From an uncultured Acidimicrobiales bacterium (GTDB taxonomy: Bacteria > Actinomycetota > Acidimicrobiia > Acidimicrobiales > SHLQ01), in assembly GCA_938038785.1 (NCBI GenBank), contig CALHTB010000033.1, positions 1-57,966 on the forward strand: DNA of 57,966 bases, written 5' to 3'. The notes under the pieces are model-generated. The model had not been told where the DNA came from. It worked only from the letters and a program-made list of their open reading frames with translations, and did no database searches. Positions 23,882 through 28,268 of this stretch are shown here, piece by piece (position 1 is the stretch's first letter; each line of letters starts with the position of its first letter). Made by a program: the position numbers and the translations under genes.

Positions 23882-24015
23882 GCCCGCTCTGTGGAGTGAC
23901 GGCCAGGCGATCTGCGGCACACAGGAAGCATCGCTGAGAGCTGCTGCCTTCCGGCCCTGACCCGGTTCACGAGTCCCTGTTGCACAGGACCCGACCGTCA
24001 CACCGCAAAGCGGGC
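23882..24015 (-). ncRNA. ffs: Signal recognition particle RNA (bacterial small type)
   Basis: The minus strand contains the conserved SRP domain IV core GGGTCAGGGCCGGAAGGCAG with the GGAA tetraloop, inside a long hairpin. The ends pair: GCCCGC (24015-24010) with GCGGGC (23887-23882), and the GTGACGG/CCGTCAC segments further in. Length is about 134 bases with these ends; the mature RNA may be shorter. It binds Ffh to target membrane proteins to the Sec machinery. Confidence 0.88.
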
Positions 24016-24047
24016 GTACCACAACGATATCGGCCCCAAACCGAATT

Positions 24048-24075
24048 TCGATAGGCGCACGCGTATCGCTGTCAA
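24048..24075 (-). promoter_or_regulatory. Promoter of the SRP RNA gene
   Basis: A consensus TTGACA -35 (24075-24070) and a TATCGA -10 (24053-24048) are separated by 16 bases on the minus strand, directly upstream of ffs. Confidence 0.65.
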
Positions 24076-24124
24076 TAGATTTCAACCTGACGAGCGCTTC
24101 GCAGCGCGGTTGGTCCCGCTGTGA

Positions 24125-24310
24125 TGATGTTGCGGTGTGTCCTCCCAGCTCGAGTGTGACTCTTGGTCCCGCTGGCTTGTTTGCCTTTGTCCCGATTTGT
24201 CCGCTCGAGTCTGGGAGGACCGCCGCTGTGGGCATGCATCGACGGAGCGAACGTGACCTGATAGGAGCTTGAGCAAGAAGTCCCGTCACAGTGCTGTCCG
24301 CAGCTTCGAT
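24125..24310 (+). ncRNA. Putative IS110 bridge RNA
   Basis: Two large stem-loops precede the transposase. The first (24132-24226) closes with GTCCTCCCAG/CTGGGAGGAC plus CTCGAG/CTCGAG. Its 49-base loop carries the left- and right-target guide matches. The second (24243-24300) closes with CGGA/TCCG and GTGAC/GTCAC, and its loop carries ATAGGAGC, identical to the element's right end. Target loop first and donor loop second is the order known for IS621-type bridge RNAs. Ends are approximate. Confidence 0.7.
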
Positions 24311-24346
24311 GATGCGTGCCAACCCTCAACAACGAAAGGGAAGGCA

Positions 24347-25402
24347 ATGACAACAATGACAGACACCGACGATTCGGTCACGGTCGGTGTGGACACACAT
24401 CGCGATGACCATGTCGCGGCTGCACTCGATCCAATGGGGCGGCTGTTAGCAACAGGAACGTTCCCGGCAACAGGGGTCGGTTATCGGCAGCTGTTGAAGT
24501 GGGCGGAATCGTTTGGACAGATCGACAAGATCGGTATCGAGGGGACTGGTTCTTGGGGAACTGGGCTTGCTCGTTACGCCGTCAATCAAGGTGTGGAGAC
24601 TCGTGAGGTGAACCGGCCGAACCGTCAACATCGGCGCCGGCACGGCAAGTCCGACACAGCCGATGCTGTTGGGGCTGCGAGGGCTGTTCAGGCTGGTGAC
24701 GCCAACGGTCAGCCTCGCGGCAATGACGGTGATGTCGAAGCGTTACGGGCGATTCGTATCGCCCATCGGTCAGCGCATAAAGCCCGAACTCAGGCCATTA
24801 ACCAGCTTCGAGCCCTGGTGGTGACTGCGCCTGAACAGCTCCGTGATCAGCTTCGATCTTTATCTGCTTTGGAGCTGGTGCGCACAGCATCGAGGTTCCG
24901 GCCATCGGACAGCACTAACGATGTCACCAAGGTCGCGATGCGTTCAATAGCGAGGCGAGCCGCAGCACTCACCGAAGAAATCGATGAGCTCGGAGAACAC
25001 CGCGACCGGCTCGTGCATCGGGTCGCGCCTGTCGAGCTGATGGAAGAGCATGGCGTTGGTGCCGATACAGCGAGCAATCTGTTGATCGCGTTTGGTGACA
25101 ATCCCGAGCGGGTTCATTCAGAAGCTGCGTTCGCTGCGCTGTGCGGGGTGTCCCCAGTGGATTGTTCTAGTGGTCGCAACCAACGGCACCGACTCAACCG
25201 AGGAGGTGACCGCCAAGCCAACAACGCCCTGTGGCGCATCGTCATAGTCCGCTTGTCAAGCCATCAACCCACACGCGACTACATGAACGGACAAATAGCG
25301 AAAGGCAAAACCAAACGAGAAGCCATCCGAAAACTAAAACGCTACATCGCCCGGCACATCTGGCGAATCCTGCAACACCACCAACCCCAACACGCCACTT
25401 GA
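24347..25402 (+). CDS. IS110-family transposase (bridge-RNA-guided recombinase)
   Basis: Transposase of 351 residues. The N-terminal RuvC-like DEDD domain shows VGVDTHRD (Asp16), the acidic residue in GIEGTGSWG, and KSDTADAVGAAR. The C-terminal Tnp_20 domain has the helix-hairpin-like GVGADTASNLLIAFGD and SPVDCSSGRNQRHRLNRGGD, which contains the probable catalytic serine. Both domains are complete with no stop or frameshift, so the element may be active. The start ATG at 24347 follows GAAAGGGAAGG. A longer in-frame start at 24269 would overlap the donor loop of the bridge RNA and is less likely. Confidence 0.92.
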   Translation: MTTMTDTDDSVTVGVDTHRDDHVAAALDPMGRLLATGTFPATGVGYRQLLKWAESFGQIDKIGIEGTGSWGTGLARYAVNQGVETREVNRPNRQHRRRHGKSDTADAVGAARAVQAGDANGQPRGNDGDVEALRAIRIAHRSAHKARTQAINQLRALVVTAPEQLRDQLRSLSALELVRTASRFRPSDSTNDVTKVAMRSIARRAAALTEEIDELGEHRDRLVHRVAPVELMEEHGVGADTASNLLIAFGDNPERVHSEAAFAALCGVSPVDCSSGRNQRHRLNRGGDRQANNALWRIVIVRLSSHQPTRDYMNGQIAKGKTKREAIRKLKRYIARHIWRILQHHQPQHAT

Positions 25403-25458
25403 CACCAATAGGAGCATCGGGACCAACCCATACTTTGAGGGGTACGACCCAACACGCG

Positions 25459-26499
25459 CTAAACCTTGGCGGCAATCCGCTCTTGGGCGATGGCGTCGGC
25501 GACTTGTGAGGACGGACGGTTCTCGGCGTCGGCCCGAGCGAGGACGTCCATCGTCCGTTCGCGTAGCCCTCTGATGCGCGAGTCGATTTCGTCAGCGGTC
25601 GATTCGGTATAGATCACCGGTGCTGCGCCAGTCACTCCGCCGCAATTCGCAAGGTAGTCGGGCACATAAGTAATGCCGCGACTGCGGAGCATCTCGCCAT
25701 GGCGATCTTCGGCCAACTGATTGTTTGCCATGCCACACACGATCTGCGCGCGGATCTCTGGGATTGTCTCGTCGTTGAGTACCGCACCCATTGCACACGG
25801 CGCGAACACATCGACTTCCTGACAATGAATTTCGTCCGCAGCAACTGCGGTGGCACCGAACTGCTTGACGATGTCAGCCACGGCGTCGTCTCGCACGTCG
25901 GCTACGACCAATTCAGCTCCGGTATCGTGCAGGTGGCGTGCGAGGTTGAACCCCGTCGCACCAAGACCCTGTATCGCCACACGTCGACCAGCCAGTTCGT
26001 CGCTACCGAACACATGGGCCACCGCCCCCAGCAAACTACTGAAGCCGCCGAGTGCAGTGAACTGGGAAGGGTTGAAGCCAGGTTCGTATCGTGACGCGTT
26101 CGCAAAGATGAAGTCGCATTGTTCGGCGAGGGTGTCCGCATCGGCTGGGCCGACGCCGACGTCGATCGCAGTCCAGAACCTGCCGTTGAGGCGCTGCACA
26201 AACGACGAGAATGCTCGAAGGAGCTCGGGCTTTTGTGGCGAGGCTGGGTCGGCGATGATCACGCACTTACCTCCACCAAGCTCGAGCCCGGCGATTGAGT
26301 TCTTGTACGTCATCCCCTTCGACAGCCGCAACACATCGGTTAGCGCGTCCGCGGCCGAGTCGTACGGGTGCATGCGGCAGCCGCCCGCGGCCGGACCAAG
26401 CGTCGTGTCATGGATGGCGATGATGGCGTGCAGTCCGACGGACTCGTCGGTGCAGTAGAGCACCTCTTCATGGCCATCAAAATCGGGGTGATCAAACAC
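25459..26499 (-). CDS. Glu/Leu/Phe/Val dehydrogenase family protein (leucine dehydrogenase-like)
   Basis: NAD-dependent amino-acid dehydrogenase of 346 residues that interconverts a branched-chain or aromatic amino acid and its 2-oxo acid. The N-terminal catalytic domain has GPAAGGCRM, MTYKNSIAGLELGGGK with the catalytic lysines, and DVGVGPAD. The Rossmann domain has the GLGATGFNLA fingerprint. The length fits leucine/phenylalanine dehydrogenases rather than hexameric glutamate dehydrogenases. It directly abuts the GNAT gene start-to-stop and is the last gene of a three-gene operon. The IS110 element lies about 40 bases past its stop, in the former terminator. Confidence 0.92.
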   Translation of the reverse strand: MFDHPDFDGHEEVLYCTDESVGLHAIIAIHDTTLGPAAGGCRMHPYDSAADALTDVLRLSKGMTYKNSIAGLELGGGKCVIIADPASPQKPELLRAFSSFVQRLNGRFWTAIDVGVGPADADTLAEQCDFIFANASRYEPGFNPSQFTALGGFSSLLGAVAHVFGSDELAGRRVAIQGLGATGFNLARHLHDTGAELVVADVRDDAVADIVKQFGATAVAADEIHCQEVDVFAPCAMGAVLNDETIPEIRAQIVCGMANNQLAEDRHGEMLRSRGITYVPDYLANCGGVTGAAPVIYTESTADEIDSRIRGLRERTMDVLARADAENRPSSQVADAIAQERIAAKV

Positions 26500-28153: not shown

Positions 28154-28238
28154 GGAGGAGTGCGAGAGCGGCCGAATCGGCACGCTTGGAAAGCGTGTGA
28201 ACCGCAAGGTTCCGTGGGTTCGAATCCCACCTCCTCCG
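28154..28238 (+). tRNA. tRNA-Ser (anticodon GGA)
   Basis: Class II tRNA with acceptor GGAGGAG/CTCCTCC, anticodon stem CACGC/GCGTG with loop TTGGAAA, a long variable arm (AACCGCAAGGTT) and T-arm GTGGGTTCGAATCCCAC. The discriminator is G and CCA is not encoded. Confidence 0.97.
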
Positions 28239-28268
28239 CTAACGAAACGTCATATCGAGGTGGGCCTT

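What the first reader, a model, noticed from the sequence alone, without database searches (positions are those of the whole stretch)
24119..25423. IS110 element whose bridge RNA guides can be read against its own insertion site
The first predicted loop upstream of the transposase repeats 12 bases of the left flank (24163-24174 = 24110-24121). It also contains 8 bases complementary to the right flank (24189-24196 against 25416-25423). The second loop repeats 8 bases of the right end (24261-24268 = 25408-25415). This is the target-loop/donor-loop logic described for IS621. It defines both ends of the element and its natural target without comparative data. The core reads CT on the left and CA on the right, a mismatch that may be a later mutation.
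Basis: partly seen in the sequence, partly recalled or inferred. Interest (0 to 1): 0.75.

Follow-up and report, generated by a model that had tools for sequence, protein, structure and literature searches.

The report
RNA-guided jumping gene with split core
A small bacterial jumping gene carries a guide RNA that spells out both where it lands and its own ends; in this element and many relatives the landing site and the element share only one base at the joint, instead of the two-base 'core' of the best-studied relative.

Summary
The finding is real but misread at the right end. The element (24120-25418, 1,299 bp) is an IS110-family insertion sequence with an intact-looking DEDD/Ser recombinase and a two-loop bridge-RNA region upstream. 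On average, relatives' target loops match their own flanks (0 of 10,000 shuffles), and uninterrupted targets exist. The 18-base target predicted for this copy, TTGGTCCCGCGGGACCAA, occurs three times without mismatch in a genome of the same genus.

Two corrections follow. The CT-left/CG-right difference is not a later mutation: RDG spells the left base and RTG the right base. Among elements whose two guides disagree at this position (N9), both junctions follow their own guide in 17 of 19, two fail on the right only, none is reversed. Only C8 is shared, whereas IS621 uses an identical CT core. The simplest reading is that strand exchange here falls between positions 8 and 9; biased repair of an IS621-type exchange is not excluded. 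No experiment was run.

The parts
24120..25418 (+). IS110-family element, 1,299 bp (one shared C, 24119 or 25418, can be counted on either side)
   Evidence: ends from conserved right-end sequence of relatives, guide matches and empty sites
24108..24119 (+). left half of target, GGTTGGTCCCG plus position 8 (C)
   Evidence: 24110-24119 equals LTG 24163-24172; intact palindrome in G171
24119..24120 (+). left junction positions 8-9 = CT; position 9 (T) is donor-encoded
   Evidence: RDG reads CT
24123..24128 (+). -10-like GATGAT, 17 nt from the right-end TTGACA when the ends are joined
   Evidence: inference by analogy with the IS621 circle promoter (PMC11208158, passages)
24132..24226 (+). bridge-RNA hairpin 1 (target-binding loop)
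   Evidence: RNA fold of 24121-24330: z -6.05, 0 of 200 shuffles as stable (coordinates); consensus fold of 19 sequences
24163..24172 (+). left target guide, LTG (position 8 and leftwards)
24189..24194 (+). right target guide, RTG: GTCC + C (position 9 = G) + G (position 8 = C)
   Evidence: complement of 25418-25423
24195..24196 (+). handshake bases AT of the target loop, complement of donor positions 6-7
   Evidence: complement of 25416-25417
24228..24323 (+). bridge-RNA hairpin 2 (donor-binding loop)
24261..24268 (+). left donor guide, LDG (ATAGGAGC)
   Evidence: equals 25408-25415
24286..24291 (+). right donor guide, RDG: TCAC + A (position 9 = T) + G (position 8 = C)
   Evidence: complement of 24119-24124
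24292..24293 (+). handshake bases TG of the donor loop, facing target positions 6-7 (CG; one G-U wobble)
24347..25402 (+). recombinase, 351 aa; D16, E65, D103, D106 and S275 align with IS621 D11, E60, D102, D105 and S241
   Evidence: Pfam PF01548 and PF02371; all five invariant in the 12-row alignment; profile match to 8wt6, whose chain I read as numbered two higher than the paper (residue names from PMC11208158 passages)
25399..25404 (+). -35-like TTGACA in the right end
25408..25415 (+). right-end sequence matched by the LDG
   Evidence: same layout in relatives
25418..25419 (+). right junction positions 8-9 = CG; position 9 (G) is target-encoded
   Evidence: RTG reads CG; empty sites read TTGGTCCCG-CG-GGACCAA
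25419..25428 (+). right half of the palindromic target

Best explanation
A bridge-RNA-guided IS110 element inserted into the centre of a palindrome, GGTTGGTCCCG|CGGGACCAACC, that recurs in the genus. By sequence, the target loop specifies the site (LTG for the left half, RTG for the right half) and the donor loop specifies the joined ends of the circular form (LDG for the right end, RDG for the left end). In this group the two molecules usually share only position 8 (C). Position 9 is encoded separately, by RTG for the target and by RDG for the donor, and after insertion the right junction carries the target's N9 and the left junction the donor's N9. Inferred, not shown: the circle intermediate; transcription of the RNA from the promoter made when the ends join (TTGACA, 17 nt, GATGAT); and strand exchange between positions 8 and 9, one base to the left of the IS621 top-strand cut (after position 9).
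For: RTG N9 equals right N9 in 33 of 37; RDG N9 equals left N9 in 35 of 36 (left position 8 forced to C). Left junction placed by LTG plus donor guide, N9 not used: 34 of 44 placed at score 9 of 13 or more, left N9 = RDG N9 in 32 of 34; of 29 with both junctions, 19 have guides that disagree at N9, and 17 have left = RDG and right = RTG, 2 have left = RDG and right = neither, 0 are reversed. At score 10 or more: 30 placed, 30 of 30 agree, discordant 17 = 15 + 2 + 0. Empty sites in the same genomes: G210, 15 of 22 pattern hits are CAGCGG-CT-GCGCCGGG, against four occupied copies reading CG left and CT right; G002, 11 of 13 hits are ..CGCTNG-CG-CTCNCTCC, against three occupied copies reading CA left and CG right. 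The target of this copy was written down and found three times without mismatch in G171, same genus. LTG positions 1-7 match own flank 5.42 of 7 against 2.69 with other guides (n 36), RTG 10-15 3.84 of 6 against 1.80 (n 37), each 0 of 10,000 shuffles. The LTG does not follow N9 (11 of 37). Named relatives read by hand with the split: L184 and L185 (Streptomyces), L187 (Sphingobium), L188 (Roseomonas). L189, annotated ISEc21 family, reads TA left and CC right; ISEc21 is reported to insert without duplicating target bases (PMC11187229 section 12).
Against: No experiment. 63 of 111 loci with a transposase hit were dropped because my patterns did not find both loops; the parser was tuned on the closest relatives and required C at LTG position 8, so left C8 (34 of 34) is partly built in; with the donor guide alone left C8 held in 17 of 19. 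Score 9 is not strict: shuffled guides reached 9 or more in 67 of 440 trials and 10 or more in 8 of 440. With the left junction placed by the donor guide alone only 19 of 44 were unique, and of 12 discordant elements 9 fitted both guides, 2 the left only and 1 neither. L011, L013, L020 and L038 fail at right N9. The 19 discordant elements, this one included, contain 10 distinct guide sets, so they are not 19 independent cases. The reversed control pattern gave 18 hits in G210 against 22 (gap lengths not shown). The G171 sites are palindromic, two of three flank one unit, and at up to 3 mismatches the pattern gave 25 forward hits in the genus against 19 for the control, so only the exact hits count. 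No empty site orthologous to this insertion was found; the own genome, 73% complete, holds no intact copy.
Confidence: 0.8

Rival explanations
1. The chemistry is as in IS621 (top strands cut after position 9, bottom strands between positions 5 and 6 by my conversion of the paper's numbering, short heteroduplex). Mismatches at position 9 are then always repaired towards the bottom strand, so the junctions look as if exchange fell between 8 and 9.
For: IS621 is the solved relative; its paper reports those cuts and suggests mismatch repair in E. coli (PMC11208158 passages and section 13). My register follows IS621: G80 pairs C8 and the handshake bases AU follow.
Against: It needs repair towards the bottom strand at N9 but towards the top strand at positions 6-7: in the four G210 copies, the three G002 copies and 17 of 19 discordant elements, none reversed (the G210 copies are among the 19). 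In the ISEc21-family element, by my hand reading, position 8 follows the opposite strand from position 9.
Confidence: 0.3
2. One reading: core CT on the left, CA at 25415-25416 on the right, identical originally and changed by a later mutation.
For: The LDG match ends at 25415 and CT is the IS621 core.
Against: Two bases (mostly AT) after the LDG match recur in relatives with different targets, so they belong to the element. The empty sites in G210, G002 and G171 have no extra bases. None of 19 GGTCCCG..CGGGACC sites in the genus has the spacer this register predicts (CTT or CAT); 11 have none (reversed control 3 sites).
Confidence: 0.03
3. The loop matches are chance or a by-product of a palindromic, GC-rich neighbourhood.
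For: The flanks form one palindrome, so the left and right target matches are partly one fact.
Against: 1 of 7,353 placements; own-flank agreement across relatives with other targets, 0 of 10,000 shuffles.
Confidence: 0.01

Closest known systems
ISEc21 (IS110 family, E. coli; Siddiquee et al. 2024, PMC11187229)
   Same: An E. coli transposase annotated ISEc21 family (L189) is 44% identical to the window's; guide RNA upstream; loop-right-end match (AGAAGGGC); ISEc21 is reported to insert without duplicating target bases (their experiment, section 12); N9 differs between the two junctions of L189 (hand reading).
   Different: ISEc21 targets IS3-family transposase genes, not a palindrome; in L189 position 8 also differs between target (T) and donor (C). 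The sections I read describe an insertion point, not separately encoded junction bases.
IS621 bridge recombinase (Durrant et al. 2024, PMC11208160; Hiraizumi et al. 2024, PMC11208158)
   Same: Two-loop bridge RNA in the left end, LTG/RTG/LDG/RDG, handshake bases, circle promoter, five catalytic residues (passages; alignment).
   Different: IS621 uses an identical CT core in donor and target, with T at position 9 almost invariant and both core bases within the LTG pairing. Here N9 is free and often differs, and the LTG does not follow N9. The LDG match here ends at position 5; in IS621 the LDG pairs up to position 8.
ISCro4 (PDB 9t56)
   Same: Solved IS110-family recombinase, second PDB relative.
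   Different: Only its chain was compared; its core rules were not examined here.

Membership tests
IS110 family (IS110 group) | RuvC-like DEDD domain plus C-terminal Tnp domain with catalytic Ser | tested here: met
   PF01548 and PF02371 above cut-off; D16/E65/D103/D106/S275 invariant in 12 rows and aligned with IS621
IS110 family (IS110 group) | Long non-coding left end with a structured RNA upstream of the gene, short right end | tested here: met
   left end 24120-24346, right end 16 bases beyond the stop codon; fold z -6.05; 26 of 43 consensus pairs with a change on both sides in at least one of 19 sequences
IS110 family (IS110 group) | Target loop matches own flanks; donor loop matches own ends | tested here: met
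IS110 family (IS110 group) | Circle form with promoter made at the joined ends; RNA bound by the recombinase | not testable with these tools
   sequence only: TTGACA-17-GATGAT across the joined ends; a TTGAC motif in 27 of 31 joined ends printed
IS621-type bridge system with a shared dinucleotide core | Same two-base core (CT) in donor and target, read by LTG, RTG and RDG | tested here: not met
   left CT, right CG in this copy; guides disagree at N9 in 19 of 29 elements with both junctions, this one included; LTG does not follow N9 (11 of 37)
IS1111 group | Guide RNA downstream of the gene, in a long right end | tested here: not met
   RNA lies upstream; right end 16 bases
IS1111 group | Subterminal inverted repeats of 7-17 bp | not tested
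   no dedicated search made

The most novel reading that the evidence does not exclude
A group of IS110 recombinases (this element, ISEc21 and relatives in Actinomycetota and Pseudomonadota) exchanges strands between positions 8 and 9 and needs no shared dinucleotide core. Each junction is written in full by one guide strand, so donor and target can be chosen independently, without the CT core that IS621 prefers.
Probability: 0.5. Interest if true: 0.75.

Novelty: new variant of a known kind. Interest (0 to 1): 0.5.

Why it matters
It gives a sequence-only test of where bridge recombinases exchange strands, which IS621 cannot give because its cores are identical. If the exchange point is really one base to the left and no dinucleotide must be shared, site choice for bridge editing would widen. 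It also shows that one window copy plus relatives sufficed to predict the natural target (written down), which was then found intact in a same-genus genome.

Tried and rejected
Rejected: the CT/CA register. Not possible: a multi-copy test in the window's own genome, which has one match only. Tried without result: close relatives in genome contigs and viral contigs from one protein query (161 pattern stretches, none confirmed; 12, none confirmed); an orthologous empty site via the dehydrogenase gene, which at E <= 1e-60 has no match in the 18 other genomes of its genus and family searched (10 of 40 genomes match, the window's own and nine of the same order), and via the SRP RNA flank (10 of 11 genus genomes match, own included; outside the own genome the matches end at query base 145 of 229 at the latest, before the insertion point); Rfam for the bridge RNA (0 matches at E <= 1 in 24000-25600); a sigma-70 scan of the inserted form (0 found, 0.7 expected in shuffles, so uninformative). 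Placing the left junction by the donor guide alone was too ambiguous (19 of 44) and was replaced by LTG plus donor guide without N9. In one search left position 8 was forced to C, and the LTG parser also required C there. An earlier count gave 12 of 13 for G002 and 14+ for G210; the lists show 11 of 13 and 15 of 22, used here. No family tree was built: 'group' means elements found by similarity to the window's protein or to L187's. Literature searches for separately encoded core bases: (listings capped, for instance 25 of 209 and 10 of 82,514); nothing in the listings or passages seen states it. Preprints and most subscription papers are not held; figures and supplements were not seen.

Full report
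What is there. The window carries one IS110-family element. The gene 24347-25402 encodes 351 residues with both IS110 Pfam domains, and five residues align with the catalytic residues of IS621 (residue names from PMC11208158, passages). It is the only match at E <= 0.001 in its genome, a 134-contig assembly judged 73% complete. The element lies between a small SRP RNA gene on the minus strand (23898-23996) and a Glu/Leu/Phe/Val-type dehydrogenase gene on the minus strand (25459-26499).

Check of the observation. The three matches are exact. The upstream region 24121-24330 folds into two hairpins, 24132-24226 and 24228-24323, with an energy 6 standard deviations below shuffles. In a sequence alignment of 19 elements, this one included, 26 of 43 consensus pairs show at least one sequence with both sides changed and the pair kept. 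That alignment was made by sequence alone and has 55% mean column identity, so the covariation is indicative only.

Relatives. The transposase finds matches at E <= 1e-20 in 83 of 298 genomes of the order and at E <= 1e-85 in 40 of 395 of the class, own genome included in both. From 111 loci with a transposase hit, 44 distinct elements gave both loops to my patterns; 63 were dropped for lack of one loop and 4 were duplicates. In all 37 where the LDG's own sequence was found downstream, the third base after it is C; in 29 of these 37 the two bases between fully complement the handshake bases next to the RTG, in 8 one of two. The handshake bases vary little, and 282 of 10,000 shuffles did as well.

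Register. In IS621, RTG bases G77-G80 pair target positions 11-8, and handshake bases A81-U82 pair donor positions 7-6 (PMC11208158, passages). Here the RTG reads GTCC-C-G followed by AT, and the right end reads AT-C-G-GGAC.

Empty sites. G210 has four occupied copies and, among 22 hits to a gapped pattern, 15 with no gap, CAGCGGCTGCGCCGGG; the reversed control pattern gave 18 hits whose gaps were not shown, so the weight lies in the no-gap class and in its agreement with the guides. G002 has three occupied copies and 11 of 13 hits with no gap and G at position 9 (control 0). For this window's copy the target TTGGTCCCG-CG-GGACCAA, written down, was found without mismatch three times in G171, same genus, and at zero mismatches in none of the other ten genus genomes, own included. 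Looser hits (up to 3 mismatches) were no commoner than expected: 25 forward against 19 for the control. Two of the three G171 sites share 22 bases with the joined flanks, GTTGGTCCCGCGGGACCAACCC.

The split core. With the left junction placed without N9: 34 of 44 placed (score 9 of 13 or more); left N9 equals RDG N9 in 32 of 34. Of 29 with both junctions, 19 have guides that disagree at N9; 17 of those have the donor's base on the left and the target's on the right, 2 have the donor's base on the left and neither on the right, none is reversed. At score 10 or more, which shuffled guides reach in 8 of 440 trials, 30 are placed, 30 of 30 agree on the left, and the 17 discordant ones split 15, 2, 0. 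With the donor guide alone, 19 of 44 are unique and the 12 discordant ones split 9 (both follow), 2 (left only), 1 (neither). The 19 contain 10 distinct guide sets. The three G002 copies, whose target loop my pattern missed, show the same by hand reading (CA left, CG right; RDG CA, RTG CG). Among named plasmid records, by hand, L184, L185, L187 and L188 show the split, L186 has CT on both sides, and L183, L191 and L192 were not resolved. In L189, annotated ISEc21 family, and the similar L190 I read TA left and CC right, so even position 8 differs and the crossover falls between 8 and 9; the RDG there spells CA, not TA. Siddiquee et al. report that ISEc21 inserts without duplicating target bases (PMC11187229 section 12).

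Mechanism. Shown by sequence: guides, ends, target, and which base each junction carries. Inferred: circle formation, transcription from TTGACA-17-GATGAT at the joined ends, RNA binding, and the exchange point. IS621 cuts its top strands after position 9 and its bottom strands between 9* and 10* (PMC11208158, passages), which I convert to between top positions 5 and 6. If this group cut the same way, top-strand inheritance would put the target's N9 on the left; the opposite is found. A cut between 8 and 9 explains N9 and positions 6-7 with one rule; repair of an IS621-type product needs opposite directions at 6-7 and at 9. I put about 0.5-0.6 on the shifted exchange and 0.3 on the repair rival.

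Novelty. The element is a new member of IS110, related to ISEc21 (44% identity to L189) and more weakly to IS621. The separately encoded N9 is a variant of the IS621 logic that I did not find stated in what I saw: passages of PMC11208160 and its section 12; passages of PMC11208158 and its section 13; passages of PMC11187229 and its sections 12 and 13. Figures and supplements, where it might be shown, were not seen.

Noticed in passing
L195 (G300) 676-1960; L193 (G171) 471-1553: In two genus relatives the target palindrome or a close variant sits at both tips of a roughly 1.1-1.3 kb unit around a DUF222 gene (with an HNH match just below its cut-off in G300); in G300 the tips are 105-bp inverted repeats, 89% complementary. 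The window's IS110 may target tips of another mobile unit.
   Followed up: partly
L044, L046, L048, L049, L103, L119, L123, L127, L187, L188: Relatives whose right flank starts CAA and reads like an IS3-family transposase gene (by eye, not searched), the kind of gene published as ISEc21's target.
   Followed up: no
L008, L037, L039 and similar: Some relatives have a transposase extended at the C-terminus, with the right end correspondingly further away; Pfam found no extra domain in L008, the one scanned. The tail looks helix-turn-helix-like by eye.
   Followed up: partly
window 28154-28239: tRNA-Ser (GGA) called by ARAGORN but not listed by the Rfam scan at gathering threshold.
   Followed up: no
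window 24269-25402: The open frame extends upstream to a TTG at 24269, within the donor loop; a longer start would overlap the bridge RNA. ATG 24347 is the likelier start.
   Followed up: no
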